Assembly: GCA_938075415.1 (NCBI GenBank)
Contig: CALJHC010000003.1
Location: forward strand, 930,001-994,000
DNA: 64,000 nucleotides
Direction: 5' to 3'
Source of the DNA: an uncultured Rubripirellula sp.
GTDB taxonomy: Bacteria > Planctomycetota > Planctomycetia > Pirellulales > Pirellulaceae
Positions 43,162-58,407 of the stretch are shown here, piece after piece. A program made the translations under genes and the position numbers. Positions within the stretch are counted from its first letter, which is position 1, and each line of letters starts with the position of its first letter. The notes beneath the pieces were generated by a model. That model worked only from the letters and a program-made list of their open reading frames with translations, was not told the DNA's origin and ran no database searches.

Positions 43162-44355
43162 ATGCAGCACAAGCAACCAAATTCAGCGATTTCGATGCTG
43201 ATTGAAAAACTAAAACCCGTCGATTCTTCCGAGTTTGCTGAACTAGCTCCGGGTCGCATCACCGCTGAAGATATTCAAGCCGATCGGGATAGCCCAGCTG
43301 CCGATGTATCCGCCATGGATGGATTTGCATTTCGCATCGCTGAACTAGAAGAGCACGGACAACTACCCGTGCAAGGTGAATGCAAAGCAGGATGCCCTCC
43401 TGTTCCTCTGCAACCCAGAACCGCGTCTCGAATCTACACCGGTGCGATTGTTCCACAAGGTGCAGATTTAGTCCTCAAACGCGAAGATGCTTCTGAAAGT
43501 GAGTCAGTACTGAAACTTAAAAAACCGACTCAACAACTGACCACCGGAGACAACATTCGAAAGGCTGGCGAAAATGCAAAGCAAGGAAATCTTGTTCTAG
43601 CCGCAGGAAGCTGTATTAATTCAGCCAATGCTGCAACGATCGCAAATTTTGGACCTTCAAAAATCAAATTAGTTCGACCATTGCGCGTGGCAATTGTGAC
43701 CACCGGTGATGAGGTTGGGAAATTCGAAACTTCTTCACCAGACCCTTGGCAACTTAGAAACAGTAACCTCAATTCCCTTCTCACGTTTTGTGCGGGACAA
43801 CCATGGATTCGAATCGCATCGCACACACATTGCACAGATAAGAAGCAAGCCATTATTGATAACTTTCAAAATGGCCTTTCGAACGCAGATGCAGTCCTAG
43901 TCACCGGTGGCGTATCAGTCGGTGATTATGATTTTGTTCCAGATGCTATTGGTAAAGTCGGGGCCGAAATACTTTTTCACGGATTACCCATTCGACCGGG
44001 CAAGCCAATCTTGGGTGCAGCGACTCAGGAGGGAAAACTGATCCTCGGTCTTCCGGGTAATCCAGTCAGCGCGTTGATCGGATGCTGTCGGATTGGCATG
44101 CCTGTTCTTCGTTACTTGGCTGGCTTTAAGGAATGGACCCCCAGGCGTCCGTTGATACGGCTCGCTACACCAGACACGAAGACAATTCCCCTGACTTGGA
44201 TGAGGCTCGTTAGCCTCAATGAAAAGGGTGACGCTGAATTATGTCCGAGCCTCGGATCTGGAGATTTAGTATCACTGGGACAAAGTACTGGATTTATCGA
44301 AATACCGCCCAATGAATGTGGCAGCGGACCCTGGCCTTACTTTGCCTGGGCATAG
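43162..44355 (+). CDS. moeA: Molybdopterin molybdenumtransferase MoeA
   Basis: MoeA inserts molybdate into adenylated molybdopterin. The 397-aa protein has ADVSAMDGFAFR with the catalytic Asp, ASRIYTGAIVPQGAD, and the MPT-binding domain with VAIVTTGDEVG, VLVTGGVSVGDYDFV, FHGLPIRPGKPILGA and LGLPGNPVSALI. The C-terminal beta-barrel domain starts near WTPRRPLIRLATPD. It shows normal length. It belongs with mobA 2.7 kb upstream, with the Tad-like operon set between them on the other strand. Confidence 0.94.
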   Translation: MQHKQPNSAISMLIEKLKPVDSSEFAELAPGRITAEDIQADRDSPAADVSAMDGFAFRIAELEEHGQLPVQGECKAGCPPVPLQPRTASRIYTGAIVPQGADLVLKREDASESESVLKLKKPTQQLTTGDNIRKAGENAKQGNLVLAAGSCINSANAATIANFGPSKIKLVRPLRVAIVTTGDEVGKFETSSPDPWQLRNSNLNSLLTFCAGQPWIRIASHTHCTDKKQAIIDNFQNGLSNADAVLVTGGVSVGDYDFVPDAIGKVGAEILFHGLPIRPGKPILGAATQEGKLILGLPGNPVSALIGCCRIGMPVLRYLAGFKEWTPRRPLIRLATPDTKTIPLTWMRLVSLNEKGDAELCPSLGSGDLVSLGQSTGFIEIPPNECGSGPWPYFAWA

Positions 44356-44433: not shown

Positions 44434-45918
44434 TCAAGCGATGATTTCGTGAAGCACATTACCATGCACATCAGTCAGCCGAAAATCGCGACCAGCATAG
44501 CGATAAGTCAGTTTCTGATGATCCAGACCAAGTAGATGCAAAACGGTTGCGTGCCAATCATGGATGTGACACGGTGAATCAACCGCTTCATAGCCATGCT
44601 CATCCGTAGCGCCGTAATTGAACCCACCTTTCACACCTCCGCCGGCCATCCAGATTGTGTAACCGCGATTGTTATGGTTTCTGCCATCAGCCCCTTGGGC
44701 CGCGGGAGTACGTCCGAACTCACCTCCCCATATCACCAAAGTATCATCCAATAAATCTCGCTGCTTGAGATCCTTGAGCAACGCCGCGATCGGTTTGTCA
44801 CAAGCGTCAGCACGTGCTTGATGATCAGCTTTCAAGTTAACATGCTGGTCCCAGTTCCCATGAGTGACCTCAACAAATCGCACACCCGTTTCAACAAACT
44901 TTCGCGCCAATAAGCATTGCTTGCCAAAGGTTGCCGTCGTTGGATCATCAACACCATACATCTGCCTTGTTGCCTGTGTCTCATTGGAAAGATCCATCAC
45001 CTCTGGCATCGCACTCTGCATTCGAAACGCTAGTTCGTAGGACTCAATCAAACCCTCAACCTCAGGTTGAAACGCCTCCCGCTTAAGTTTTTCCCGGTTC
45101 AGATCCTGAATGAAATTTAACTGCTTGCGCTGCTGACTCTGATTAAGTGATCGATGTTTAATATCGGGTATCGAAACATCTTCTCGATCACGACCAAAGC
45201 GATTTCCCCGTTCACTTCGTCCCACTTTGGTTCCACCATAAATTGCTGGTAGAAATGCGCTGCCATAATTTCTCGAGGAACTCGGAGGAGGACTAAGTGA
45301 AACAAAACCAGGAAGATTTTGATTTTCGGTACCCAAACCATACAAAGTCCACGCGCCTATCGATGGTCGAATGAACTGAGCAGTTCCCGTATGCATTTGG
45401 GTCATCGCCCCGGGATGGACAGGCTGATCACATTGCATGCTTCGTATCAAGCAAAGATCATCTGCAAATTTCGCCGTGTTGGAAAATAAATCCGAGACCC
45501 ACAAACCACTCTGTCCATGTTGGCGAAATTGCCACGGTGATTTCAGTAACTTACCACCATACTTTCCAGTCTTGCCGTGATCTCTCTCCAATTGCGGCTT
45601 GTAATCAAAAGTGTCGAGGTGTGAGGGACCACCCGACATACACAAGAAAATTACACGTTTCGCTTGACTTGAAAAATGAGGTGTCCGCGGCGCGAGGGGG
45701 CCAGTCAAATTACCATTGGAATCTGCAACTTCATCTGCCAATGCGAGTCGCTCAGAGAAACCTCCACACAATCCTCCTAGAGCGAGCATACCGAAGCCAG
45801 CCGAGGTATTTGTCAGCATGTGACGTCGGGAAAATCGCTGACTTTCGCCCGCTTCTTTGGATGAAGACAAATGAGTTTGTCTGATCATGGAACTGCTCTC
45901 CAACTTGATGGTCAACAT
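44434..45918 (-). CDS. DUF1501 domain protein (exported)
   Basis: DUF1501 proteins have an alkaline-phosphatase/sulfatase-like fold and are very numerous in planctomycetes. The protein begins with SQRFSRRHMLTNTSAGFGMLALGGLCGG, a Tat-type leader (SRRHML). Family motifs are RVIFLCMSGGPSHLDTFDYKPQL, RSMQCDQPVHPGAMTQMHTG, RFVEVTHGNWDQHVN and LVIWGGEFGRTPAAQG with the metal residues, and NHNNRGYTIWMAGGG. The ATG at 45918 shares one base with the stop of the PSD1 gene (TGATG), so the genes are translationally coupled; an ATG at 45888 is an alternative. The function is unknown; glycan breakdown is often suggested. Confidence 0.9.
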   Translation of the reverse strand: MLTIKLESSSMIRQTHLSSSKEAGESQRFSRRHMLTNTSAGFGMLALGGLCGGFSERLALADEVADSNGNLTGPLAPRTPHFSSQAKRVIFLCMSGGPSHLDTFDYKPQLERDHGKTGKYGGKLLKSPWQFRQHGQSGLWVSDLFSNTAKFADDLCLIRSMQCDQPVHPGAMTQMHTGTAQFIRPSIGAWTLYGLGTENQNLPGFVSLSPPPSSSRNYGSAFLPAIYGGTKVGRSERGNRFGRDREDVSIPDIKHRSLNQSQQRKQLNFIQDLNREKLKREAFQPEVEGLIESYELAFRMQSAMPEVMDLSNETQATRQMYGVDDPTTATFGKQCLLARKFVETGVRFVEVTHGNWDQHVNLKADHQARADACDKPIAALLKDLKQRDLLDDTLVIWGGEFGRTPAAQGADGRNHNNRGYTIWMAGGGVKGGFNYGATDEHGYEAVDSPCHIHDWHATVLHLLGLDHQKLTYRYAGRDFRLTDVHGNVLHEIIA

Positions 45919-48602
45919 CAATCGAGGTAACGAAAATCGGCTGATGCAAAGAGGCTCTGACAGAAAGTGGCAAGACCCTCATTTCTATTTGACACTTTTG
46001 ACTCAGTGCGCCATGCCTTTACGAATTCAACCGATTTGGATAACTCATCAAAAGTAGGATGTCGGTTGAAAGCAAGCTGAAAACCATACTGAATTTGATC
46101 AACAAGGCGACTGGAATGCTTGGATAACCTGTCGGCAAATGCCTCGCTACGTTCAATCACAAATGAATTATTCATCAGGTAAAGTGATTGGTTTGCCGTG
46201 TTGGAACTTTCTCGTTTACCCACCACGATACTCGAATCGGCAAAGTCAAAAACAACTAAAGATCTTGGTTCATGATCTCGAACAGAGGGTAGATAAATAC
46301 TGCGGCACAATGCGTCTTCCATGTCGAGCTGCGAGGTGATCTTCCGTAATGACTCTTCAACTGCAAGGCGAAATTGGTCTCGGACAATCCCGTCAAAACG
46401 TGATCCCTGAGAAAATGCTCGACTTTGTCCGGTGATCCTACTTGGTGGAAAATTACGAGGGCTGGCGGTCACCGAATTCGAATTCCGGACCGCTTGCCCT
46501 GCCATTTGCATTGCTCTTCGATTCAATTCACGAGGATCACCAAGAAAACTACCTACCACTCGCTGATACCCCGCCTTGGATACCTCCGAACCTCGAGGTC
46601 GCGAATAATCAATCTCTCCACTGACACTCAGCATTGAATCACGAATCGACTCCGCATCAAGCTGCCGCGCAGGAAATTGCCAGAGTAAAGTGTTATCCGA
46701 ATCAATCAGATGAGCCTCTTCACTAAAGTCAGAGGCAGTCCGATAAAGATGTGAAGTTGCAATCTCACGTATGATCGTTTTCATCGACCAGCCGGATCGA
46801 ATTAATTGCACCGCCAGATAATCCAGCAAAGCGGGGTGACTCGGCGATTGGCCAGTGACTCCAAAATTTTCAGTTGACCTGACGAGACCCTCGCCAAAAA
46901 GATTTTTCCAAAGGCGATTCACCAGTACACGGGCCGTCAGAGGGTTCCGATCACTTCCGACCCACGAAGCAAATTCCAACCGACCACTGGAGGATTCTGG
47001 AACTGTTTCAGAATGAAGACAAAGCACTCTCGGAAAACCTCTTCTCACGCTCTGGGCGGGAAGATCAATCTCCCCACGCATCAGAATTCGGGCATCTTGA
47101 TACTGCCCTTCAAGATCTTGAACTCCCATGCAGTAACTATTAGGAATCCCATTCTCGTCAACAACCGAAAGCTTTGCGGAAAGACTGGTTATCTGATTCA
47201 ACAGTCGAAGACGTGTTCGCTGTGCATTGGCTCCACCTTGCGCGGCAGACCGTCCACTTCGGCGGAGCTCTGAGAGTGAGTTCTGAACATCTCTTATTTG
47301 CTGATGTAAATCATCCAGTTCTGATGCGGAATATTTTTTGTCGTCAGCATGTACATCCTGCACGGGCAATTTCAAAAGGCTGCTCTGCCGACGCAACTGC
47401 GCAAATGAATAGCTACCATATTCCGAGGGTGGAATCCCAAAGTACGTCTGTGCGTTTTGAAAGATACCCACAAGTGAGTAATAATCCTGTTGCGCGATTG
47501 CGTCAAACTTGTGATCATGACATCGGGCACAAGAGACAGACGTTCCCAGAAACACTCTCGTCACAGCATCTATTTGCTCATCAATCAGATCCGCTTTAAA
47601 TTGCAATCGATTCTGCTCGTTAACATTTTTTGGGCCAATAGCTAAAAATGTGGTAGCGATTAGATTTGATGCCCACTGCTCATCTGTTGCGACTGGGATG
47701 AGATCACCAGCGATTTGCTCTCGAGCAAATTCATTAAAAGGCTTGTCGTTATTGAACGCATCGATAACGTAATCTCGGTAACGCCAAGCGTACGGGTAGG
47801 TCATATTGACTTCGCGACCGGTGGACTCAGCGTATCGAGCAACATCTAACCAATGCCTGCCCCACCTCTCTCCAAACTGGTTCATCGCCAGCAACTTTTC
47901 GACAGCATCCTCGACAGCTTGCTGTGGATCTTTTAACCAAGCTTCTCCAAATTGCTTCTGCAAAGTGACAGTCGGAGGCAGACCCACCAGGTCAAAGCAT
48001 AGACGACGTAAGACGACAAAATCAGTTGCATCCCCAGCGGGACCAAGCCCGGCTTGCTCTAATTTGTCCAACACAAAATGGTCGATTGATCCACTCGGCC
48101 ACCAATCCTGTTCCACGTTTGGCAGGGTCGGCATCATGGGCGATTGGTAAGCCCAGAATGTTTCCTTGGCCCTCGCAACGTCCTGATCCGATACCTGCCC
48201 TTGCACCTCGGCAACCGCTTCAACACGCGGATCAGGTGCACCCATCTCAATCCACTTTCTGAAATCCTCAATCACGTCATCGGAAAGTTTTTTGCGGGGT
48301 GGCATTTCCCAATCTTCGTGCCTCATTGCACTTAGCAGCAAACTGGCATCCGGATCTCCGGGAACGACTGCGGGACCGCTGCTACCACCGGAACGTGTCA
48401 AAAATTGGCTATCAAGGCGCAATCCGCCGCGAACATTTCCTGACTGGCTGGAATGGCAACCAAAGCATTCCTTCACCAGAACAGGCCGGATTTTAGACTC
48501 AAAAAACGCAATCTCCTCCTGAGAAGACTCAGCTGCCGATAAATGAGGTCCAAAAAACAATGTGGACGTTCCGGCTAAAACTATCTTTGCAAAGAAATGC
48601 AT
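45918..48602 (-). CDS. PSD1 cytochrome c / DUF1549 / DUF1553 protein
   Basis: This planctomycete-specific layout joins a c-type haem domain to DUF1549 and DUF1553. The 894-aa protein has a signal peptide (FFAKIVLAGTSTLFFGPHLSAA), then VLVKECFGCHSSQSG, a CxxCH haem site, and RLDSQFLTRSGGSSGP. DUF1549 spans about 180-380 with NQFGERWGRHWLDVARYAES and VSCARCHDHKFDAI, a second CxxCH. DUF1553 covers roughly 550-890, with NPLTARVLVNRLWKNLFGEGLVRST. The ATG at 48602 is more likely than 48620, as it sits at the start of the signal peptide. It is coupled to the DUF1501 gene by TGATG. The pair is seen in dozens of copies in planctomycete genomes. Confidence 0.92.
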   Translation of the reverse strand: MHFFAKIVLAGTSTLFFGPHLSAAESSQEEIAFFESKIRPVLVKECFGCHSSQSGNVRGGLRLDSQFLTRSGGSSGPAVVPGDPDASLLLSAMRHEDWEMPPRKKLSDDVIEDFRKWIEMGAPDPRVEAVAEVQGQVSDQDVARAKETFWAYQSPMMPTLPNVEQDWWPSGSIDHFVLDKLEQAGLGPAGDATDFVVLRRLCFDLVGLPPTVTLQKQFGEAWLKDPQQAVEDAVEKLLAMNQFGERWGRHWLDVARYAESTGREVNMTYPYAWRYRDYVIDAFNNDKPFNEFAREQIAGDLIPVATDEQWASNLIATTFLAIGPKNVNEQNRLQFKADLIDEQIDAVTRVFLGTSVSCARCHDHKFDAIAQQDYYSLVGIFQNAQTYFGIPPSEYGSYSFAQLRRQSSLLKLPVQDVHADDKKYSASELDDLHQQIRDVQNSLSELRRSGRSAAQGGANAQRTRLRLLNQITSLSAKLSVVDENGIPNSYCMGVQDLEGQYQDARILMRGEIDLPAQSVRRGFPRVLCLHSETVPESSSGRLEFASWVGSDRNPLTARVLVNRLWKNLFGEGLVRSTENFGVTGQSPSHPALLDYLAVQLIRSGWSMKTIIREIATSHLYRTASDFSEEAHLIDSDNTLLWQFPARQLDAESIRDSMLSVSGEIDYSRPRGSEVSKAGYQRVVGSFLGDPRELNRRAMQMAGQAVRNSNSVTASPRNFPPSRITGQSRAFSQGSRFDGIVRDQFRLAVEESLRKITSQLDMEDALCRSIYLPSVRDHEPRSLVVFDFADSSIVVGKRESSNTANQSLYLMNNSFVIERSEAFADRLSKHSSRLVDQIQYGFQLAFNRHPTFDELSKSVEFVKAWRTESKVSNRNEGLATFCQSLFASADFRYLD

Positions 48603-49047
48603 GGTCGATGAACCTTCCATTTGCCCTTAGCCACTCGTGTATCCCAAGCAGGAATCTGCGACCCCAAGCCGCCGCATCTATTCTCCGGTTGAGTCGAATG
48701 TAGAGGTCATCTCTGGAAAAGATAACCCGAATTCGAAGATCCATTCAAAAGAGAATGCTCCAAGACAAGTCACTGACTTGAGTTGCTCACGCTTTTTAAA
48801 CAACTCAAGTCCGAAGAAGTTCCGATAATTGACTAGGCAGGAATTTTTTTGGCGCGGTAATCAGTCACGATTCTCGGCATCTTCTTGGTTTCGAAAGTCG
48901 GCGGGCATCCGCAACAAGACCAACGGAAAGCCTTGTATATTATCAGGCGAAAACACTTCCAGTCTGCCCAACGCAATCCAAGCAACCAAATCAATCACCG
49001 TGACTTCAGTGCAAAACATCTCTTCCAGCCTACAGCATGCAAACAGC

Positions 49048-50091
49048 ATGACCAGACGCATCACCTTGGGAATGATTGCTGCAATCCTATTTTGCAACAC
49101 AAATTGGTTGAATGCTCAATCGTCAAAGAACCAAACACCTAGGCCGCTAATATTTGATACTGACATTGGCAATGATGTTGATGACGTTTTGGCACTGGGC
49201 ATGATACATGCCCTCCAAGATCGCGGAGAATGCGAACTATTGGCGGTTACGATTACCAAAGACAGTCCATTAGCCGCTAGTTTTACCGACGCGGTCAATA
49301 CTTTTTATGGACGTGGGAAAATTCCTATCGGTGTGTGTAATAGTGGGATCACATCCGAGGCGGGTAAATTCAACGCGTTAGCACAGCAAAGAGATGGGGG
49401 AGCCTTGCGATACGAACACGACCTTCTTTTGGGACAGAAGCCACCACACGCAGTCACGGTTCTTCGCTCTGCACTCGCAAAAGCACCCGATCATTCAGTA
49501 GCCATTGCACAAGTCGGCTTCTCAACAAACTTGGCTGACCTCCTGGCATCTCCTCCCGATACGATCAGTCCCCTCAGCGGAAAACAACTGATCGAGAAAA
49601 AAGTTTCAGTGCTCTCCATCATGGCTGGCGCGTTTAAAAAAATCCCTGACGCAAATGGAATGCTAAACGATCACCATGAATACAATGTGATAAAAGATAT
49701 TCCATCTGCCCAGTTACTAGCAGAGACATGGCCTACAAAAGTCATATGGAGCGGTTTTGAAATTGGAATCGCCATTCCGTTCCCCCACGAGAGCATTGAA
49801 CAAGACTTCAATTATGTCGACCATCATCCGCTTCGCGATGCTTACATTGCTTACAGTCCACCACCTCATAACCGACCAACATGGGATCTAACAAGCGTCC
49901 TTTATGCGGTTCGCCCAGACCGAAACTACTTTGATCTTTCACCGATTGGAGCTGTGGAAATATCTAATGCCGGATTGACCACATTTACCGAATCACCTGA
50001 AGGAAACCACCAATACTTACGAGTGGACCAAGATCAGGCTATCCGGGTAACCTCCACCCTCGTCTCGCTTTCAAGCCAACCACCTCGGTAA
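49048..50091 (+). CDS. Exported nucleoside hydrolase (IUNH family)
   Basis: Nucleoside hydrolases split N-ribosides into ribose and a base, using a calcium ion held by an Asp cluster. The cluster is seen as PLIFDTDIGNDVDDVLALG near residue 35. The 347-aa protein has a signal peptide, MTRRITLGMIAAILFCNTNWLNAQ, so the enzyme should act outside the cytoplasm. The start at 49048 rests on this signal peptide; the open frame extends to 48829 but adds a non-signal sequence. Late motifs SIMAGAFKK and YVDHHPLRDAYIAY fit the family. It leads the operon with ribokinase and a ribose-type importer. Confidence 0.88.
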   Translation: MTRRITLGMIAAILFCNTNWLNAQSSKNQTPRPLIFDTDIGNDVDDVLALGMIHALQDRGECELLAVTITKDSPLAASFTDAVNTFYGRGKIPIGVCNSGITSEAGKFNALAQQRDGGALRYEHDLLLGQKPPHAVTVLRSALAKAPDHSVAIAQVGFSTNLADLLASPPDTISPLSGKQLIEKKVSVLSIMAGAFKKIPDANGMLNDHHEYNVIKDIPSAQLLAETWPTKVIWSGFEIGIAIPFPHESIEQDFNYVDHHPLRDAYIAYSPPPHNRPTWDLTSVLYAVRPDRNYFDLSPIGAVEISNAGLTTFTESPEGNHQYLRVDQDQAIRVTSTLVSLSSQPPR

Positions 50092-50117
50092 CCTTCGCCC
50101 ACACGGAATTCAACCAA

Positions 50118-51050
50118 ATGCGCGTGCCGAAAATTGCTGTTGTAGGCTCTCTCAATATCGACTTGGTAATGCGTTGTGAGAGACTACCTTCGCCGGGGGA
50201 AACCATCATGACAGACGATGTCCTGACTGTTCCGGGCGGAAAAGGAGCCAACCAAGCTGTCGCCGCCGCACGCGCCGGGGGTGAAGTTTCGATGATCGGC
50301 CGAATCGGTGACGACGCTTATGCGCCGATACTGATCAACAACTTGAGACAGCAGAAAGTGATCACCAATCAGATTCATATGACGCCATTAAAAAGCAGTG
50401 GGGTTGCCGTTGTTGCTGTGGACTCAAACGGCCAAAACGCGATCATGGTCTCCCCCGGTTCCAACGCCACTCTTAGCCCAGAAGATATTGATGATGCAGC
50501 CGATGTGATTCGGGATGCCGAACTGTTGATGATTCAACTCGAAACTCCCATGGAAACGGTCCTGCATGCAATTCAAATTGCAAAGCAAACCGATACCCGA
50601 ACCTTACTCGATCCCGCTCCAGCGCCCTCCAAGCCAACACCGTCCAATCTGTTCAGTGTTGATTTTCTATGCCCCAATCAATCGGAGGCAGCGGCGTTGA
50701 CTGGTATTACCATTCGCAGTCAGGAAGATGCTTTCCGCGCTGCATTTGATTTACAAAAAAGAGGTGTCCAAACGGTAATGATTACCCTGGCCGAAAAAGG
50801 TGTCGTCTTGCTCGATAACGATGGGCCTCGCGTTATCCCCCCTCTCCAAGTCAAACCCGTCGACACGACCGCCGCGGGCGATGCATTCGCCGGAGCATTT
50901 GCTGTTCGCGTCGTGGAAAGCGATTCCACTGACGATGCTGCCTACTTTGCTGCCACGGCAGGTGCTATGTCGACAACGACGCACGGTGCTCAACCATCAT
51001 TGCCCACTCGAAAGGAAATCCTTGAAAACTGCCCCACTTCAAACCAATAG
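50118..51050 (+). CDS. rbsK: Ribokinase RbsK
   Basis: RbsK phosphorylates ribose at C5 for entry to the pentose phosphate route. The 310-aa PfkB-family protein has VGSLNIDLVMRCERLPSPGET, the ribose-binding VPGGKGANQAVAAARAGG, and the anion-hole/catalytic motif VDTTAAGDAFAGAFAV with the base Asp. VMITLAEKGVVLL is the ATP-site strand. It follows the nucleoside hydrolase by 26 bases and overlaps the proposed start of rbsB. It is the intracellular end of the scavenging route. Confidence 0.94.
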   Translation: MRVPKIAVVGSLNIDLVMRCERLPSPGETIMTDDVLTVPGGKGANQAVAAARAGGEVSMIGRIGDDAYAPILINNLRQQKVITNQIHMTPLKSSGVAVVAVDSNGQNAIMVSPGSNATLSPEDIDDAADVIRDAELLMIQLETPMETVLHAIQIAKQTDTRTLLDPAPAPSKPTPSNLFSVDFLCPNQSEAAALTGITIRSQEDAFRAAFDLQKRGVQTVMITLAEKGVVLLDNDGPRVIPPLQVKPVDTTAAGDAFAGAFAVRVVESDSTDDAAYFAATAGAMSTTTHGAQPSLPTRKEILENCPTSNQ

Positions 51051-52032
51051 CTGGATCAGCACTTTGAATTCTGAAAAGTTTTTACCGATCATCCTCTCGG
51101 CATTGATTCTTGCTCAGGGCTGCTCGTCTGAGTCACCCGTTAACTCAAGCGTCAATGACGAGAGCAAAAAGCCACGCATTGCATTAATCATGAAGTCGCT
51201 GGCGAATGACTTCTTTGCCTCAATGGAGCGAGGTGCGAGACAACACCAAGAATCCAATTCAATTCGCTACGAATTAATTTGCAATGGCATCAAAGATGAA
51301 TCCGACTTAGGTCGGCAAGTAGCATTGGTGGACGAAATGGTTGCCGCTGGTGTTGATGCAATCGTAATAGCCCCCGCAGACTCCAAGGCTCTCATTCCCG
51401 CGATAAAACATGCCAAGCAAGCCGGTGTCATTGTGGTCAACATCGATAACAAACTTGATCAGGAAATTCTCGCAAAAGAGACCGTGACTGTCCCGTTCGT
51501 TGGACCCGATAATCGAAAAGGCGCAGCAATGGTTGGGAATTACCTTGCATCCAAACTAGAAAAAGGTGACGAGGTGGCGATTTTGGAGGGTAAAACAACC
51601 GCTTTCAACGGTGTTCAACGCAAACTTGGCTTCCAAGACGCGATGAACAAAGCTGAAATAAAAGTCGTCAGCAGTCAATCGGCAGACTGGGAAACCAACA
51701 AAGCCAATACAATCACCTCGTCGATTTTAAGAGAACACCCCAACCTCAAGGCTGTCCTGGCGGCGAATGACTCGATGGCAATTGGTGCCGTTGCCGCGGT
51801 AAAGGCACTTAATCGATCAAAGCAAGTTATGGTCATTGGATTTGATAATATTGACGCTGTGCAAACGCTTATTCGTGAAGGCAAAGTATTAGCGACTGCC
51901 GACCAACATGGCGAAGATCTTGCCACTTTTGGCATTGAAACCGCTCTCGATCTTCTTGCTGGCAACTTGATAACACCTGCGGACATGCAAACGCCAGTCG
52001 ATCTTATCAATCAGAGTACGCTGACGGACTAA
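51022..52032 (+). CDS. rbsB: Ribose-type ABC transporter substrate-binding lipoprotein RbsB
   Basis: The protein is a periplasmic-binding protein of the ribose/galactose group (Peripla_BP_4). FLPIILSALILAQGCSSES is a lipoprotein signal with lipobox LAQGC. The first domain has ALIMKSLANDFFASMERGARQ and VDAIVIAPADSKALIPAIKHA. The second has VAILEGKTTAFNGVQRKLGFQ, LKAVLAANDSMAIGAVAAVKA and VMVIGFDNIDAVQTLI, the hinge and sugar contacts. No ATG is available. TTG at 51022 has AAAGGA 5 bases upstream; TTG at 51064 gives a tighter lipoprotein signal. The start overlaps rbsK by 29 bases if the first is used. Confidence 0.9.
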   Translation: MKTAPLQTNSWISTLNSEKFLPIILSALILAQGCSSESPVNSSVNDESKKPRIALIMKSLANDFFASMERGARQHQESNSIRYELICNGIKDESDLGRQVALVDEMVAAGVDAIVIAPADSKALIPAIKHAKQAGVIVVNIDNKLDQEILAKETVTVPFVGPDNRKGAAMVGNYLASKLEKGDEVAILEGKTTAFNGVQRKLGFQDAMNKAEIKVVSSQSADWETNKANTITSSILREHPNLKAVLAANDSMAIGAVAAVKALNRSKQVMVIGFDNIDAVQTLIREGKVLATADQHGEDLATFGIETALDLLAGNLITPADMQTPVDLINQSTLTD

Positions 52033-53543
52033 TGCCTAAAATAATCTTGTCCGTTAACGATGTCTCTAAAAACTTTGCGGTTCGGGTATTAGACAAAATA
52101 CAGTTCGATTTGCGCCTGGGAGAAATACACGGTTTGATTGGTGCTAATGGCGCTGGAAAAAGCACCCTTTGCAAAATAATCTCGGGACTACTGTTACCTG
52201 ATTCAGGAGAGATGAAACTGAATGGAGTCCTCTATCGACCCAAAAACCGCAACGACTCTGAACAGTCAGGCATACAGATTGTTCATCAAGAACTGTCACT
52301 GGTTGACACACTGACCGTATCAGAGAATCTCTTTCTTAATCGACTACCAACCCGCTTTGGCTGTTTGAATAAAACATCTTTGTACCGGAAGGCAAAAAGC
52401 ATTTTGAACAAATTTGGGCTGAAAGACATCAACCCTGACTCGCTTGTTGGATCCTTGGGGATTGGACAAAAGCAACTAGTTCAAATTGCAGTCTCACTTT
52501 CCCGTGATTGCAAAGTATTAATTCTTGATGAACCGACCAGTAGCCTAAACCAGCGGGAAACCGAACAGCTTTTCTGCTGGTTGCAATCACTGAAACTTCA
52601 GGGAATCGGGATCATTTTCATCTCTCACCGAATTCCGGACATAAAGACACTCACAGACAGAGTCACGGTACTTCGCGACGGACAATCAATCACTACCTGT
52701 GACACCAAAGATGTGTGTTCTAAATCTATTCTTAGCTATGTCGCTGGCGAATCCACAGCGAGAGTGACAAAAAAACCATTCCAGTCATATTGCTCACATG
52801 AACCTGGGATTCGTCTGAGTCACCTTGAAGTTCAAAATGGAATACAGGACATCTCTTTCACAGCCTATCGAGGTGAGCGTGTTGGTATCACTGGACTCGT
52901 TGGATCAGGCAGAACACAACTGCTTCATGCAATCTTTGGATCGACGAAGACAAAACGGGGTTCGATACAAATTGGTGCAAGTGAACCAACGACCTGTTTC
53001 ACACACCCAAAAGATGCGTTGCGATCAGGGATTGGAATGGTAACCGAGGATCGCAAACAAACCGGCCTCATGATGTCTTTAGACGTTAAAACCAATTTGA
53101 CGTTTGCTTCCCTCAAATCTCGCTTTTCAAGCAATGGTCTCATTCATGAGACTGAGGAGCAAAAAGAGTCGAGCAAACTGCGAAAAGATACACATCTAAA
53201 ATGCAATAATCTGCAGCAACCCGTCAAAACATTGAGCGGAGGAAATCAGCAAAAAATCGCCCTAGGTAAATGGCTCGCTTGCGATGTCAAGATCCTGCTT
53301 CTTGATGAGCCAACACGAGGGATTGATGCAGTGGCAAGACAGAACATCTACACGAAAATGGAAGACCTCGCCAAACAGAAAAAAACAATTGTCATGGTGA
53401 GCAGTGACTTGGATGAATTACTAGACAACTGCGACCGCATCTTAGTGATTTCACAAGGACGATTAACAGCAAGCTTCACCCGGCCGGATTGGTCAAGTGA
53501 CCGAATCACTTCTGCATGCTTTACAGACCAGGTGGACAATTAG
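52032..53543 (+). CDS. rbsA: Ribose-type ABC transporter ATP-binding protein RbsA
   Basis: RbsA carries two fused nucleotide-binding domains. In the first, Walker A is GANGAGKST, the signature-like SLGIGQKQLVQIA and Walker B VLILDEPTSSLNQRE. The second has the degenerate Walker A GLVGSGRTQ typical of sugar importers, with TLSGGNQQKIALGKWL and LLLDEPTRGIDAVARQ. Length is 503 aa. Its ATG overlaps the stop of rbsB by one base (TAATG). Confidence 0.94.
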   Translation: MPKIILSVNDVSKNFAVRVLDKIQFDLRLGEIHGLIGANGAGKSTLCKIISGLLLPDSGEMKLNGVLYRPKNRNDSEQSGIQIVHQELSLVDTLTVSENLFLNRLPTRFGCLNKTSLYRKAKSILNKFGLKDINPDSLVGSLGIGQKQLVQIAVSLSRDCKVLILDEPTSSLNQRETEQLFCWLQSLKLQGIGIIFISHRIPDIKTLTDRVTVLRDGQSITTCDTKDVCSKSILSYVAGESTARVTKKPFQSYCSHEPGIRLSHLEVQNGIQDISFTAYRGERVGITGLVGSGRTQLLHAIFGSTKTKRGSIQIGASEPTTCFTHPKDALRSGIGMVTEDRKQTGLMMSLDVKTNLTFASLKSRFSSNGLIHETEEQKESSKLRKDTHLKCNNLQQPVKTLSGGNQQKIALGKWLACDVKILLLDEPTRGIDAVARQNIYTKMEDLAKQKKTIVMVSSDLDELLDNCDRILVISQGRLTASFTRPDWSSDRITSACFTDQVDN

Positions 53544-53549
53544 ACTTCC

Positions 53550-54506
53550 ATGAACATGCTCGGAACCTTCAAGCCACAGAAACAGCAAGCTGGACTCACT
53601 GCGGTCTTGATTTTGCTCTGTGGAATCTTTGGTGTCTCTAGTGAAAACTTTCTCGCCACACCCACGTTTATCTCCATTGCGAATCAGATCCCAGATCTCA
53701 CGCTGGTTGCGGTTGGGATGACCTTCGTGCTCGTCATTGGGGGAATCGACCTTTCAACCGGTTCAACCCTTGCCCTCTCATCAGCCGTTTTCGGGGTACT
53801 TCTAACCGAACATGACTGGACTCTTTTTCCGGCAAGCATCGCTTGTATCGCCACAGGATCATTGTGTGGATTGGCAAACGGGTTCATCTCAATCAAAGCA
53901 CGAATTCCTTCGTTCATAGTAACGTTAGGAATGCTTGAGATTGCCAGAGGTGCGACAAAGGTGGTCACGCAATCACAAACGAAATACATCGGTTCAATTA
54001 CTGACCCAATCAGTGACCCATTGCCCGTTCTATCTGTATCGCCGGCCTTTCTCGTCGCCGTCTTTGCCGTAATCGCAGGACAATTCGTTCTTTCAAAAAC
54101 GGTATTTGGTCGGTACTGCATTGCGGTCGGCACCAACGAGGAAGCCGTTATCATGTCAGGTGTGCGAATTGCACCCTACCAAATCATGGCATTTTGCGTT
54201 TGCGGCGCTCTTTGCGGAATTGCCGGTCTGACACATGCTGCGAAACTATCTACCGCAGATCCCAATGCAGCGATTGGTATGGAACTGTCCGCAATCGCAG
54301 CCTGCGTCATTGGCGGAACCAGTCTCATGGGTGGACGAGGAAACGTTATCAGCACATTTTTGGGCGTTCTTATTATTTCCGTGCTTCAGACCGGCCTTGC
54401 CCAACTGGGAGTCAGTGAACCGATGAAACAGGTCACCACCGGGTCGGTCATCATTATCGCTGTACTGTCGGATGCACTTCGAAGACGATGGAGCAGTAAT
54501 GGGTGA
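53550..54506 (+). CDS. rbsC: Ribose-type ABC transporter permease RbsC
   Basis: The 318-aa membrane protein has about 8-10 hydrophobic segments. Family marks are LTLVAVGMTFVLVIGGIDLSTGSTLAL, GLANGFISIKARIPSFIVTLGML, and the cytoplasmic contact GTNEEAVIMSGVRI. GMELSAIAACVIGGTSLMGGRGNVISTFLGVL is the usual late segment. It follows rbsA by 6 bases. No regulator such as LacI/RbsR and no rbsD gene lie beside the operon. Confidence 0.93.
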   Translation: MNMLGTFKPQKQQAGLTAVLILLCGIFGVSSENFLATPTFISIANQIPDLTLVAVGMTFVLVIGGIDLSTGSTLALSSAVFGVLLTEHDWTLFPASIACIATGSLCGLANGFISIKARIPSFIVTLGMLEIARGATKVVTQSQTKYIGSITDPISDPLPVLSVSPAFLVAVFAVIAGQFVLSKTVFGRYCIAVGTNEEAVIMSGVRIAPYQIMAFCVCGALCGIAGLTHAAKLSTADPNAAIGMELSAIAACVIGGTSLMGGRGNVISTFLGVLIISVLQTGLAQLGVSEPMKQVTTGSVIIIAVLSDALRRRWSSNG

Positions 54507-54591: not shown

Positions 54592-56472
54592 TTAATCTTT
54601 TATCTCAATCACTGAACCGACTTCATAAATACGATTGGATCCGAAATCCTCTCCGATGAATGCGGCAAACCGAACTGCCTTTACTTCAAGATCTGTGGGA
54701 ATATCAAAGAATAATTCAACACTTGCTTTCCCTTCAACCTCCACCACCTGTCGGTCAATCCGCTCATTGAGGGCACGCGTTTGGTCGGATAAAACACGTT
54801 TCAATGTAACGTGTAATTTTTGCTTGCCGATTTCCCTTGGTAGATCAAATGAGATTTCAATGCGGCAGGAACTTTCTTTTTCAACTTGCCCTGAGTGTCG
54901 AAACTGCAATGCGTTTTCGCCTAACTTTCCTGCCTCGGGTCTCTTTGACTTTCCACGCTTTGCTCGACGTTTCTCTCGATTTTCAATTGCACGCTGATCT
55001 TCTTGATTCATGTACCGCTCGATCTCCTGATGATCCAACGATTCCTTCAGCAAAACAGCCACAGGGTCGTCAATCCTCTCTAACTCTGTCTTGAGTCGAC
55101 CTCGAAGAGTTGTGGCTTTCTGCTTATGTTCGGTGTATCCGATCAAATTCTCGAGGCAATCCGAATCAGATTGGATATCGTAGAACTCTTGCAGAACTCG
55201 ATAATCAAAAAGATGAAGTCGGCGACTGATATCTGCATCTTCAGAGGACAATTCTTGCATTCGACGATACGAAACAGTGCCGGTAGTTGCCGTTGCAAAC
55301 TTCCGATTCCCATCCGACCAAGGATTAAACAAGTAAAGCGATTCCTTGGTTTGCACTCCTCTGATCGGGTGACGATTACCGCCGGAATTTTCATTGTATT
55401 GCAGAATGACAAAATCACGTTCTGATTGCTGAAATCCACGAAGAAGCGGTGCAAAAGATCGACCTTGTAATCGATCGGGGGTTGGATGCGGATGATCCAT
55501 CACGTCTAAGAGTGTGGGCAGGAAATCAACCGCGGAGACCATGTGCATTTCATCCATTTCTCCTGATGGAGTAACGCCGGGCCAACGGATCATCAATGGA
55601 GTTCTCGTGCTGTGGTAATAGAGCTGAGTTTTTGCGAACGGCAGCGGCATCCCATGATCTGAGCAAAAGAAAACAAAGGTGTCATCAAGATGCCCGGTAT
55701 CAACAAGAGCGGAGTGTATCTCGCCAAAAGCGTCATCCGCTCGCCGCACCGATGAATAATACAGAGCCAATTCTTCTCGTACTTGTTCATCTTCAAAAAG
55801 AAATCCGGGAACCGTAATGTCCTCCGCCTCAAATATTTTTGACGGAGTGAATCGATCAACTGGTCTCCCTGCTCGACTGCCACGAGCGTAGAAAGGCTTG
55901 TGTGGATCGGAGATGTTAATCATCAAGCAAAAAGGCTTGTCCTCGTCTTTGGCTAGAGCAATTCCTTGCCTTGTGGACTCACCATAGCTTTGGGGGTCCT
56001 TCACATGGTATTTCTTCCCGTCTCGGCCAACGTCAAGCACGGCATCCCAAGCATAGGGCGTGTAAGGGGTAGAATGCGAAACCTTCCCACGAATGGCGCT
56101 AAAGTAACCAGCCTGCTGCGCCAAATCACAAAGCACTGGATAATCAGCGTTGGGGTTTTGGACAAATCCTTCTACACCAGTTTGGTGTGCATAGAGACCC
56201 GACCACATGATATTCCTGCCAGGCATGCAGTTTCCGACTTGAACATGAGCGTGCTTGAATCGGAGTGCCGTTCGAGCAAATGCGTCGATGTGGGGTGAGG
56301 TATCGCCAACCGTGCATCCATAGACCCCCAATGAGTCAGCGCTCATGTCGTCAACGGTAATGATCAGAATATTGGGTTGCTTTGACGGCTTAATAGCGCA
56401 AGCCACAAACCCATTCAAAACAGTCTGCAGAAAACAAACTAAAACGAAGATGAAAAATGAAAATCGGGACAT
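54592..56472 (-). CDS. Exported family S1 sulfatase
   Basis: Type I sulfatases remove sulfate esters using formylglycine made from Cys in CxPxR. Here the site is NCMPGRNIMWSGLY with Cys82, so it can be matured. A signal peptide (FFIFVLVCFLQTVLNGFVACA) marks export; PNILIITVDDMSADSLGVYG is the metal-binding opening. DTFVFFCSDHGMPLPFAKTQLY holds late catalytic residues. It resembles heparan-N-sulfatase-like enzymes (GNCMPGR, ISDPHKPF). The C-terminal 170 residues form an extra region with a charged coiled stretch (REKRRAKRGKSKR) and a beta-rich end. Marine planctomycetes use many sulfatases on algal polysaccharides. It converges with rbsC. Confidence 0.93.
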   Translation of the reverse strand: MSRFSFFIFVLVCFLQTVLNGFVACAIKPSKQPNILIITVDDMSADSLGVYGCTVGDTSPHIDAFARTALRFKHAHVQVGNCMPGRNIMWSGLYAHQTGVEGFVQNPNADYPVLCDLAQQAGYFSAIRGKVSHSTPYTPYAWDAVLDVGRDGKKYHVKDPQSYGESTRQGIALAKDEDKPFCLMINISDPHKPFYARGSRAGRPVDRFTPSKIFEAEDITVPGFLFEDEQVREELALYYSSVRRADDAFGEIHSALVDTGHLDDTFVFFCSDHGMPLPFAKTQLYYHSTRTPLMIRWPGVTPSGEMDEMHMVSAVDFLPTLLDVMDHPHPTPDRLQGRSFAPLLRGFQQSERDFVILQYNENSGGNRHPIRGVQTKESLYLFNPWSDGNRKFATATTGTVSYRRMQELSSEDADISRRLHLFDYRVLQEFYDIQSDSDCLENLIGYTEHKQKATTLRGRLKTELERIDDPVAVLLKESLDHQEIERYMNQEDQRAIENREKRRAKRGKSKRPEAGKLGENALQFRHSGQVEKESSCRIEISFDLPREIGKQKLHVTLKRVLSDQTRALNERIDRQVVEVEGKASVELFFDIPTDLEVKAVRFAAFIGEDFGSNRIYEVGSVIEIKD

Positions 56473-56725
56473 TGCTTTAACTCACACGCAGTTAGTCGTT
56501 TACCAATCTTCTCGATGATGATTCGAAAAGCGTCTGCCACAGTGCCAAAGAAAGAAGAACAAAATCCACCGTACCATGCAACAATCAATTGCACATCCGC
56601 CATACGGAATCCCACCCAAGCCTTATCAAGAGATAACATCAAACCCACCTAAAGATGATCAAGCCGATATCGCAAAAAAACAGGCCGTCATTACAGGGAA
56701 AGACATTTAGCAACCATCCAGGGAC

Positions 56726-57253
56726 TCAACATCGGCCAATCCAGAATCTTAGCGTCTCACTAACTTCTTCCTCTTCCAGATGCTCGTGGGCTAGAAGCGC
56801 ATCGGCCAAGGCTGCCACCGCTGGCCAGCAATCATCTCGCCCCAATATCTCTTTCAACTGCATGACCACACCACCAAGTATTTTTAATTTGGCCGCTTTC
56901 TCTGAGGCCAACGAACCCACGAGGTGCCAAGCCATCTGCCAATCCTGCTGCCAAGGGGCAAACTCACCGATTCCAAATGACTCACCGCGATAAACCATTT
57001 CAGCCGCCGGTCCAGCCAAAATGGTCAAGATCTCTCTCTGGCATTGAGTGTTTAGGTTGCTTCCAACACCCTTCCATGCGATTCGACAATCACCAAATTG
57101 TCGCACGCCCGGATGATCACTCTCACCGCCCAATTGCATCGACTCAACTGCACCACCCAAGACAAAACCGATCGTGGCGTGCCCTGCTTCGTGGTAAGCC
57201 GTTAGCGTTTCCTCGTCATCCAAAAGCCAACCCTCGTGTGCTAGAATTTCCAA
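56726..57253 (-). CDS. Stand-alone M41-like metalloprotease
   Basis: The 175-aa protein has the zinc motif HEAGH at residues 21-25 in TAYHEAGHATIGFVLGGAVE, then TQCQREILTILAGPAAEMVYRGE as in the protease half of FtsH. It lacks the AAA ATPase and membrane parts of FtsH. A helix-rich C-terminus (LADALLAHEHLEEEEVSETL) follows. The start is a TTG at 57253; a TTG about 12 codons later is also possible. It may be a small M41 peptidase that works with a separate partner or an inactive relative. It lies divergent from an alcohol dehydrogenase. Confidence 0.72.
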   Translation of the reverse strand: MEILAHEGWLLDDEETLTAYHEAGHATIGFVLGGAVESMQLGGESDHPGVRQFGDCRIAWKGVGSNLNTQCQREILTILAGPAAEMVYRGESFGIGEFAPWQQDWQMAWHLVGSLASEKAAKLKILGGVVMQLKEILGRDDCWPAVAALADALLAHEHLEEEEVSETLRFWIGRC

Positions 57254-57369
57254 TCATTCGAACTGAACCGTTAAATATCTAATCCTTCAACTCATTGAGT
57301 TGAAGGTAATTAACGGTCACAAAAATCTTCCATCTATCATTGACAACCTACCCAGAACGAAACCTGAAC

Positions 57370-58407
57370 ATGAAAGCTTTATTGCTAACCGAATACGAGA
57401 AGATGGAAGTTACTGAAGTAGATGAACCCGTGACCGGGCCTGATGACGTTTTGATTCAAGTGGAAGCCTGCGGTATCTGCGGTAGTGATATACACGGATA
57501 CGATGGTAGTACAGGTCGACGCATCCCTCCACTGGTCATGGGGCATGAGGCCGCTGGTGTAGTCGTCAAGACTGGCAGCAATGTTAACGATTTGGCCGAG
57601 GGCACTCGTGTTACTTTCGACTCGATGGTTTCGTGTGGAAACTGTGAGTTCTGTCGCCGAGGCTCCGGGAACTTGTGCGACAACCGCATGGTTCTTGGAG
57701 TGTCATGCGGTGAGTATCGTCGGCACGGTGCTTTTGCCGAGCGAATCAGTGTACCCAGACGCATCGTTTACCAGATTCCTGAGACTTTACCTTTTGAGCA
57801 TGCCGCCTTGGTGGAAGCAGTATCAGTCGCAGTCCACGCGGCGAATGTTACACCAATCCAACTTGGGGACACTGCTGTTGTGGTTGGAACCGGAATGATT
57901 GGGCTGCTAACTCTGCAAGCAGCCAGAGCAGCCGGAGCTAGCCAAATCATCGCAGTGGATGTGAATTCAAAACGACTCGAAGTTGCCCAGCAACTCGGTG
58001 CTGATCACGCGTTGAATGCCAACGAACATTCTATCGCTGATCGGGTGCGCGAACTAACGGGTGGTCGAGGAGCGGACGTGGCATTGGAGGTGGTAGGAGC
58101 AACCTCCACAATCGGTACAGCAATTGAGTCTGTGCGAAAAGGAGGCAATGTCACGTTGGTCGGTAATATTTCTCCAACAATCGAGCTACCGCTACAGTCG
58201 GTCGTCACCCGTGAAATTACCCTTCGCGGAACCTGCGGTTGCAATGGTGAGTATCCCGAATGTATCGATCTGATGAATCGCGGCGTCATCAATGTAGCTC
58301 CCCTTATCACTGCTGAAATCCAGTTAAAAGAAGGACCCGAATGGTTCAATCGCCTACACGCCGGTGACGCAGATCAAATGAAGGTTGTTGTGAAGCCACA
58401 AACGTGA
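57370..58407 (+). CDS. Zinc-dependent alcohol dehydrogenase (sorbitol/galactitol type)
   Basis: The 345-aa MDR protein has the catalytic-zinc sites CGICGSDIHGYDG and GHEAAG, and the structural-zinc Cys set in SCGNCEFCRRGSGNLC. The Rossmann motif is AVVVGTGMIGLLTLQAARAAG with VDVNSKRLEVAQQLGA downstream. It resembles galactitol-1-phosphate and L-threonine 3-dehydrogenases, which oxidise secondary alcohols with NAD+. An Asp after the second strand (AVDVNSKR) suits NAD. The ATG at 57370 gives MKALLLTEYEKM; an in-frame ATG at 57340 is less likely. The substrate is unknown. Confidence 0.9.
   Translation: MKALLLTEYEKMEVTEVDEPVTGPDDVLIQVEACGICGSDIHGYDGSTGRRIPPLVMGHEAAGVVVKTGSNVNDLAEGTRVTFDSMVSCGNCEFCRRGSGNLCDNRMVLGVSCGEYRRHGAFAERISVPRRIVYQIPETLPFEHAALVEAVSVAVHAANVTPIQLGDTAVVVGTGMIGLLTLQAARAAGASQIIAVDVNSKRLEVAQQLGADHALNANEHSIADRVRELTGGRGADVALEVVGATSTIGTAIESVRKGGNVTLVGNISPTIELPLQSVVTREITLRGTCGCNGEYPECIDLMNRGVINVAPLITAEIQLKEGPEWFNRLHAGDADQMKVVVKPQT

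What the first reader, a model, noticed from the sequence alone, without database searches (positions are those of the whole stretch)
49048..54506. Operon linking an exported nucleoside hydrolase to a ribose importer and ribokinase
Seen: a signal-peptide nucleoside hydrolase, then rbsK, rbsB, rbsA and rbsC on one strand, with gaps of 26 bases or less, a rbsK/rbsB overlap, a TAATG overlap and a 6-base gap. Known: each family. Inference: nucleosides are split outside the cytoplasm and the ribose alone is imported and phosphorylated, so bases are left outside or taken separately. Known nucleoside hydrolases are mostly cytoplasmic, so an exported one coupled to Rbs is unusual. Neither rbsD nor an RbsR-type repressor is next to it.
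Basis: partly seen in the sequence, partly recalled or inferred. Interest (0 to 1): 0.62.

Follow-up and report, generated by a model that had tools for sequence, protein, structure and literature searches.

The report
Exported nucleoside-hydrolase and ribose-importer operon
A planctomycete operon appears to cut nucleosides outside the cytoplasm with an exported enzyme and then import and phosphorylate only the ribose; the strategy is known from other bacteria, but the enzyme belongs to a branch of its family with an altered metal-binding signature for which I found no test.

Summary
Confirmed. Five same-strand genes (49048-54506) encode a nucleoside-hydrolase-like (NH) protein with a signal-like N-terminus, a ribokinase, a lipoprotein sugar-binding protein, a double ATPase and a permease. 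The order recurs in relatives. In 60 related genomes the close NH ortholog is in 20 of 22 that carry this RbsB and 0 of 38 that lack it (threshold set after the fact; with any family member, 21 of 22 and 12 of 38). In 15 of the 20 the genes lie about 1 kb apart. Among 80 RbsB loci from many phyla, NH genes of at least three remote subfamilies sit beside the same RbsB clade, so the pairing looks selected.

Best reading: extracytoplasmic nucleoside cleavage, then ribose-only uptake. The concept is known (periplasmic Nuh of P. aeruginosa), so 'unusual' was overstated. The more interesting part is the enzyme: a 10-residue fingerprint DxDxxxDxDD that fits the HopQ1/XopQ motif, and Trp in place of the leaving-group His, as in purine-specific hydrolases. 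RbsB keeps 8 of 10 ribose contacts but misses the ribose-equivalog cut-off. Several relatives have a LacI-type regulator upstream; this window does not. Activity, substrate and export are inferred, not shown.

The parts
49048..50091 (+). Exported nucleoside-hydrolase-like protein (347 aa)
   Evidence: PF01156 54.8 bits over cut-off 34.2; AlphaFold2 model pLDDT 95.3, nucleoside-hydrolase fold, Z up to 29.4
49048..49116 (+). Predicted signal peptide (about 23 aa; cleavage site NA|Q guessed by eye)
   Evidence: Hydrophobic N-terminal extension in 41 of 41 aligned family members, starts chosen by me; model helix 2-27; no dedicated signal-peptide program was available
49156..49185 (+). Extended Asp fingerprint DTDIGNDVDD (D37-D46)
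   Evidence: DxDxxxDxDD in all 47 related ORFs listed; D37, D39, D43, D45, D46 invariant in the 41-row alignment
49882..49887 (+). W279-D280, counterpart of His-Asp at the last Ca2+ ligand
   Evidence: D280 invariant, W279 at least 90% in alignment A2; profile alignment to a solved RihC (8qnd) sets them against His-Asp
50118..51050 (+). Ribokinase RbsK
   Evidence: TIGR02152 338 bits over cut-off 299.65; the only close match in the genome
51022..52032 (+). RbsB-like lipoprotein sugar-binding protein (start TTG 51022 or TTG 51064)
   Evidence: PF13407 192.3 bits; lipobox Cys invariant among 11 aligned orthologs; 8 of 10 ribose contacts as in E. coli RbsB
52032..53543 (+). RbsA-like double ABC ATPase (CUT2 type)
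   Evidence: PF00005, two stretches
53550..54506 (+). RbsC-like permease
   Evidence: PF02653 155.7 bits; best NCBIfam match is ribose permease, below its cut-off

Best explanation
A ribose-scavenging operon. The hydrolase is secreted across the inner membrane (inferred from its signal-like N-terminus), binds Ca2+ through its Asp fingerprint and D280 (inferred from homology), and hydrolyses the N-glycosidic bond of nucleosides, probably with a leaning to purine nucleosides since W279 replaces the proton-relaying His (inferred). Released ribose is captured by the lipoprotein RbsB, imported by RbsA/RbsC and phosphorylated by RbsK to ribose-5-phosphate. Shown here: gene content, order, conservation, co-occurrence, predicted fold, conserved residues. 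Inferred: export, catalysis, substrate, ribose specificity, direction of flow.
For: Among 60 relatives the close NH ortholog (best E<=1e-120) is in 20 of 22 RbsB-positive and 0 of 38 RbsB-negative genomes (within the genus 13 of 13 and 0 of 9); with any match at E<=1e-10 the figures are 21 of 22 and 12 of 38. In 15 of the 20 the two genes are 0.9-1.3 kb apart, a 16th is split by contig ends, and 4 keep both although unlinked. In 199 genomes drawn across the phylum, 8 have both and 5 of the 8 are co-located, the window's included. Of 80 RbsB loci, 41 have at least 5.5 kb on both sides, and 21 of these 41 have an NH-type gene within 5.5 kb on the same strand. The associated NHs include three groups 18-27% identical to each other beside the same RbsB clade. 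Signal-like N-terminus in 41 of 41. N48, F50, F51, D128, R186, N235, D261 and Q281 of RbsB match ribose contacts of E. coli RbsB (sites from passages of PMC2630998 and PMC3676853). Only one close ribokinase in the genome. High-confidence NH fold.
Against: RbsA, RbsB and RbsC all fall below the NCBIfam ribose-equivalog cut-offs; RbsB scores higher on the D-allose model (172.6 versus 154.5) and RbsA best on AraG. Two pocket positions differ (R90N, F164W). [quoted passage not shown] XopQ is inactive on common nucleosides. 12 of 38 RbsB-negative genomes have a more distant NH of the family; 11 of these 12 show no rbs-like genes nearby, one lies beside a different ABC pair. 20 of the 41 well-covered RbsB loci have no NH nearby on the same strand. 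In the 199-genome sample both genes are rare (10 and 15). A nucleoside permease exists elsewhere in the genome. No expression or enzyme data.
Confidence: 0.7

Rival explanations
1. The exported NH-like protein acts on another extracellular riboside, such as ADP-ribose/NAD fragments, modified nucleosides, nucleotides or cyclic nucleotides, rather than plain nucleosides; ribose may still be the product that is imported.
For: The fingerprint fits DXXXDXDD, described for HopQ1/XopQ, which fail on standard nucleosides; XopQ binds ADP-ribose; a 2',3'-cNMP phosphodiesterase activity is cited for XopQ and cleavage of a cytokinin riboside monophosphate for HopQ1. XopQ entry 4p5f has the lowest rmsd of the 50 rows (2.5 A).
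Against: XopQ is said to have no residues for leaving-group activation, whereas this family conserves Trp before the last Asp as in active purine hydrolases. The family profile matches XopQ weakly (E 0.1) and several active NHs better (E about 1e-7). Ordinary NHs lie in the rbs clusters of Pseudomonas.
Confidence: 0.15
2. The transporter imports a different sugar (D-allose or another pentose/hexose) and the NH neighbour is only loosely related.
For: RbsB scores higher on the D-allose model than on the ribose model and shares Trp at position 164 with AlsB.
Against: The ribokinase passes its equivalog cut-off. At position 16 the family has Phe as in RbsB, where AlsB has Trp. P. aeruginosa PA7 RbsB from an rbs cluster has the same letters at 10 of the 11 positions compared (one of the 11, F214, was added from memory) and the same profile bias. 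None of the five genes is an isomerase or epimerase.
Confidence: 0.08
3. Coincidental adjacency with no functional link.
For: 4 of 20 genomes keep the two genes apart; further NH paralogs are common in these genomes.
Against: Co-occurrence and linkage counts; remote NH subfamilies beside one RbsB clade in different gene orders.
Confidence: 0.03

Closest known systems
Pseudomonas aeruginosa periplasmic nucleoside hydrolase Nuh with ribose uptake
   Same: Periplasmic cleavage of adenosine/inosine; ribose taken up and phosphorylated (PMC5437708, passages seen; PMC5522865, whole text)
   Different: Nuh is quorum-sensing controlled, and no NH-type gene was detected in the 10 kb on either side of RbsB in the P. 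aeruginosa PA7 locus L143, whereas the window's NH lies in the operon. Nuh's own sequence was not compared.
Pseudomonas rbsB-rbsA-rbsC-LacI-rbsK loci with an NH gene (P. putida, P. umsongensis, P. fluorescens, P. cerasi, P. sp. KUIN-1)
   Same: RbsB 50-53% identical to the window's in the three compared; an NH gene follows in 6 of 8 Pseudomonas loci
   Different: The NH has DTDPGADD and fits RihA/RihC models best, below cut-off, in the two scanned; about 20% identical to the window's; 2 of the 6 have a clear signal-like N-terminus, 3 do not, 1 is unclear
HopQ1/XopQ-type nucleoside-hydrolase-like proteins
   Same: Asp motif DXXXDXDD fits D39-D46; NH fold, XopQ Z 28.8, rmsd 2.5. Over 3,600 sequences with the non-canonical site are reported in PMC6019455 (passages)
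   Different: HopQ1/XopQ are injected effectors without shown activity on standard nucleosides; the window's family has a signal-like N-terminus, keeps Trp before the last Asp and sits in ribose operons
Group II purine nucleoside hydrolases (Trypanosoma vivax IAG-NH)
   Same: Trp immediately before the last Ca2+ Asp (PMC8910321); first row of the structure list, Z 29.4, tied with many other NHs
   Different: 14% identity; the second stacking Trp of group II was not looked for by structure
Bifidobacterium RbsR2/RbsR3 regulons with rihC and rbsK
   Same: Hydrolase, ribokinase and transport genes predicted to be co-regulated (PMC4746261, passages)
   Different: The transporters are predicted nucleoside transporters, so nucleosides are presumably imported first
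Bacillus exosporium nucleoside hydrolase
   Same: Another hydrolase outside the cytoplasm (PMC8910321, passage)
   Different: Linked to spore biology, not to ribose uptake
Bacteroides thetaiotaomicron rus locus (Glowacki et al. 2020)
   Same: Recalled only: ribose-scavenging locus with ribokinases and a nucleoside hydrolase
   Different: Recalled only: SusC/D-type outer membrane uptake; the paper is not held

Membership tests
Nucleoside hydrolase family (PF01156) | Profile score above Pfam cut-off | tested here: met
   54.8 versus 34.2 bits
Nucleoside hydrolase family (PF01156) | NH fold | tested here: met
   pLDDT 95.3; the 50 PDB entries listed have Z 26.3-29.4 and are nucleoside hydrolases or XopQ
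Canonical nucleoside hydrolase | DxDxxxDD fingerprint | tested here: not met
   DxDxxxDxDD instead, 2 residues longer; a gapped alignment still pairs four Asp with the canonical four
Canonical nucleoside hydrolase | Glu/Asn after the Ca2+ loop and the last Ca2+ Asp | tested here: met
   N213 and D280 invariant, E211 at least 90% in A2; counterpart roles taken from homology
Canonical nucleoside hydrolase | Hydrolysis of nucleosides | not testable with these tools
   Needs an enzyme assay
HopQ1/XopQ-like proteins | DXXXDXDD motif | tested here: met
   D39xxxD43xD45D46 against the motif as printed in PMC3608555; HopQ1/XopQ sequences were not fetched, so the extra D37 was not compared
HopQ1/XopQ-like proteins | Common ancestry within that clade | not tested
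   Only a weak profile match to XopQ, E 0.1
Ribokinase | TIGR02152 equivalog cut-off | tested here: met
   338 versus 299.65; the PRK11142 ribokinase model is missed, 306.3 versus 341
NCBIfam RbsB/RbsA/RbsC equivalogs | Equivalog cut-offs | tested here: not met
   154.5/337, 395.7/745, 185.5/398. Comparison: P. aeruginosa PA7 RbsB also misses its cut-off, 141.4/337
CUT2 sugar ABC importer | Peripla_BP_4 binding protein, double ATPase, BPD_transp_2 permease | tested here: met
Ribose-binding protein | Ribose-contact residues of E. coli RbsB | tested here: inconclusive
   8 of 10 published contacts identical, R90N and F164W differ; all constant across 11 aligned orthologs

The most novel reading that the evidence does not exclude
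The extended-fingerprint (DxDxxxDxDD) proteins are a distinct, widespread and active clade of exported ribohydrolases in planctomycetes, verrucomicrobia and allies. They use a lengthened metal loop and Trp stacking to release ribose from purine nucleosides, and they are free-living kin of the puzzling HopQ1/XopQ effectors, so the ribose operon reveals what that motif is for.
Probability: 0.3. Interest if true: 0.62.

Novelty: new variant of a known kind. Interest (0 to 1): 0.45.

Why it matters
If true, some free-living planctomycetes and verrucomicrobia take ribose from dissolved nucleosides without having to import the base, which bears on how nucleic-acid debris is recycled in water and sediment. 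It also gives a natural test of the HopQ1-type Asp motif: an operon that needs free ribose predicts that a protein with this motif can be an active ribohydrolase. The pairing of one RbsB clade with at least three remote hydrolase subfamilies, in different gene orders, is good genomic evidence that hydrolase plus ribose importer is a selected unit.

Tried and rejected
phmmer of the NH against PDB sequences gave nothing at E<=0.01; a 41-row profile was needed. NCBIfam gave no family for the NH at E<=1e-5. The upstream conserved gene at 43162-44355 was suspected to be a regulator but is MoeA-like. The single LacI-family gene found in the genome was tested as a trans regulator: 31-34% identical to the LacI genes that head the planctomycete operons (up to 38% to Pseudomonas pieces), beside an ORF that looks like a sugar transporter by eye (not scanned), so rejected as ortholog. 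Promoter and terminator scans gave no more than shuffles. One RbsD_FucU gene lies on another contig; whether it is RbsD or FucU was not settled. Literature searches: (all 10). That I found no report of the planctomycete operon or a test of its NH rests in an open-licence library, mostly on listings.

Choices and limits. The E<=1e-120 line for 'close' hydrolases was drawn after seeing the data, in the gap between 4.4e-125 and 7.5e-116; the count at the search's own limit (E<=1e-10) is given beside it. Fisher values are not corrected for relatedness. The 80 named loci and the 60 relatives overlap: L073, L074, L077, L079 and L085 have the contig lengths of L033, L036, L041, L049 and L169, so the two sets are not independent. 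A2 used 41 of 47 NH ORFs; A3 used 33 of the 43 NH-type ORFs of the 80 loci, plus the window's. In the tree the label 'contigs_linked' was put on every row from the 80 loci, including two (L084 second gene, L090) that are not on the rbs strand; the program warns of long branches (L096, L084, L090, L071) and possible false joins. The hydrophobicity threshold was mine and is imperfect: 4 of 15 RbsK controls pass it, 0 of 18 RbsA. The model's first 26-31 residues are outside the aligned range of the fold comparison.
Full report
What is there. The window holds five same-strand genes at 49048-54506 with gaps of 26 bases or less. The first encodes a 347-residue nucleoside-hydrolase-like protein (PF01156, 54.8 bits against a cut-off of 34.2). 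The others are a ribokinase (TIGR02152, 338 against 299.65) and a CUT2-type sugar importer: lipoprotein binding protein, double ATPase and permease. The start of RbsB is ambiguous: TTG 51022 overlaps rbsK by 29 bases, TTG 51064 does not overlap. The three importer genes miss the NCBIfam ribose-equivalog cut-offs; RbsB of the P. aeruginosa PA7 rbs cluster misses its cut-off too, which suggests the model is narrow. The nearest named relatives by RbsB are two Rubripirellula MAGs.

Conservation. In 60 related genomes (the window's included), 33 have a hydrolase of this family at E<=1e-10 and 22 have the RbsB ortholog at E<=1e-80. The close hydrolase (best E<=1e-120, a line drawn after seeing the data) is in 20 of 22 RbsB-positive and 0 of 38 RbsB-negative genomes (Fisher p about 5.5e-14); inside the genus it is 13 of 13 and 0 of 9. 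With any hydrolase of the family it is 21 of 22 and 12 of 38 (p about 7e-7). None of these values is corrected for relatedness. In 15 of the 20 the two genes lie 0.9-1.3 kb apart; in a 16th (G007) contig ends separate NH-RbsK from RbsB-RbsA-RbsC; in four (G019, G032, G034, G035) they are unlinked but both kept. The two RbsB-positive exceptions are G025 (no hydrolase match) and G028 (only a more distant one). Of the 12 RbsB-negative genomes with a hydrolase, 11 show no rbs-like gene near it and one (G054, L057) has it beside a different RbsA-RbsC pair. In 199 genomes drawn across the phylum, 10 have RbsB (E<=1e-60), 15 have the hydrolase (E<=1e-40), 8 have both, and 5 of the 8 are co-located, the window's included. 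The operon is thus conserved where present but not widespread in the phylum.

Beyond the group. Of 41 loci with at least 5.5 kb on both sides, 21 have an NH-type gene within 5.5 kb on the same strand and 20 do not; over all 80, many with short flanks, 32 do. At least three hydrolase types, 18-27% identical to each other, are found beside RbsB: the window's type (upstream of rbsK in planctomycetes, downstream of rbsC in Verrucomicrobia), a Phycisphaerae-centred type (L103, L120, L123, L133), and a RihA/RihC-like type in six of eight Pseudomonas loci. The same importer clade has therefore probably been paired with hydrolases more than once. In the tree all 16 first-gene hydrolases lie in one clade of 24 rows (98/93 support) with 4 rows from the named loci and 4 unlinked rows; those 4 (L039, L040, L046, L050) come from the four genomes that keep an unlinked RbsB.

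The enzyme. The AlphaFold2 model (34-row alignment, pLDDT 95.3, pTM 0.90) has the nucleoside-hydrolase fold; the first row is T. vivax purine hydrolase (Z 29.4), with many others within 1 Z unit, including XopQ (Z 28.8, rmsd 2.5). All 47 family ORFs listed carry DxDxxxDxDD where canonical enzymes have DxDxxxDD. A gapped profile alignment pairs four of the Asp with the canonical four and leaves two extra residues; read without gaps, D39-D46 fits DXXXDXDD, the motif described for HopQ1 and XopQ (PMC3608555, PMC11685791 and PMC6019455, passages seen). PMC6019455 reports over 3,600 sequences with such a site, from plant-pathogenic bacteria, fungi, algae and mosses; planctomycetes are not named in the passages I saw. 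N213 and D280 are invariant and E211 nearly so. W279 precedes the last Asp, as in group II purine hydrolases, where Trp stacking stands in for His in leaving-group activation (PMC8910321, section 2.3, first of two parts read). XopQ is described as lacking leaving-group residues and inactive on common nucleosides (section 2.3.4 read); HopQ1 failed on standard substrates but is cited as cleaving a cytokinin riboside monophosphate. My inference is that this family is active and leans to purine nucleosides; no call tests it.

Export. All 41 aligned members have a hydrophobic N-terminal extension (maximum 10-residue hydropathy at least 1.6, starts chosen by me); controls: RbsK 4 of 15, RbsA 0 of 18. 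Of the 31 hydrolases near RbsB listed, 27 pass; the four that do not are from Pseudomonas. No dedicated predictor was available, and periplasm versus outside cannot be told.

The binding protein. Eight of ten published ribose contacts of E. coli RbsB are identical; Arg90 is Asn and Phe164 is Trp, constant across the 11 planctomycete orthologs and the Pseudomonas and other relatives compared. This favours a monosaccharide over a nucleoside but does not separate ribose from allose.

Genome context. The operon's ribokinase is the only close one found in the genome (a second match is 28% identical over part). There is a CNT nucleoside permease, three PF01048 matches over the cut-off, one of them short and weak at 30.2 bits, and a second hydrolase with the canonical fingerprint and no N-terminal extension, so uptake of whole nucleosides probably exists in parallel and 'bases are left outside' remains open. 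The genome is 87% complete, so absences are not firm.

Regulation. The two scanned match the NCBIfam RbsR model NF047341 best, at 207.8 and 190.2 bits against a cut-off of 382. The window has none, and the only LacI gene found in the genome is not an ortholog.

Known or new. Extracytoplasmic nucleoside cleavage with ribose uptake is known for P. aeruginosa Nuh (PMC5437708, passages; PMC5522865, whole text); hydrolase, ribokinase and transport genes are predicted to be co-regulated in bifidobacteria (PMC4746261, passages); a similar Bacteroides locus is recalled only. What I found no report of, within the searches named under Tried and rejected, is the planctomycete/verrucomicrobial operon and a test of its extended-fingerprint enzyme. 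Verdict: real and conserved, a new variant of a known kind.

Noticed in passing
L075, L086, L106, L124, L127, L150 (and 9 further loci of the 80 with shorter flanks): RbsB is followed within 600 bases by RbsC with no RbsA-like ATPase found in the locus: 15 of 80 loci by tblastn with the window's RbsA at E<=1e-5; 14 have no hit, L110 has weak ones upstream. The six named have about 9 kb or more on each side. The importer may borrow an ATPase encoded elsewhere.
   Followed up: partly
L034:6868-7890, L048:11189-13200, L049:12351-14406, L089:13382-14425, L093:13121-14428: One or two further exported hydrolases of other subclades follow rbsC in several relatives, giving operons with two or three hydrolases, perhaps for different bases.
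   Followed up: partly
window 44434-48620: A DUF1501 and PSCyt1/PSD1 gene pair on the other strand lies between the MoeA-like gene and the operon here and in L037, whereas in L035, L036, L043 and L044 the MoeA-like gene is directly upstream of the hydrolase: an insertion or loss within the genus.
   Followed up: no
window 54592-58407: A sulfatase, a 175-aa protein without a Pfam match and a zinc alcohol dehydrogenase follow the operon in the same order in L036 and L044.
   Followed up: no
L057:10725-14378: Another hydrolase of this family follows a different RbsA-RbsC pair, only 36% and 31% identical to the window's: possibly a further pairing of hydrolase and sugar ABC importer.
   Followed up: partly
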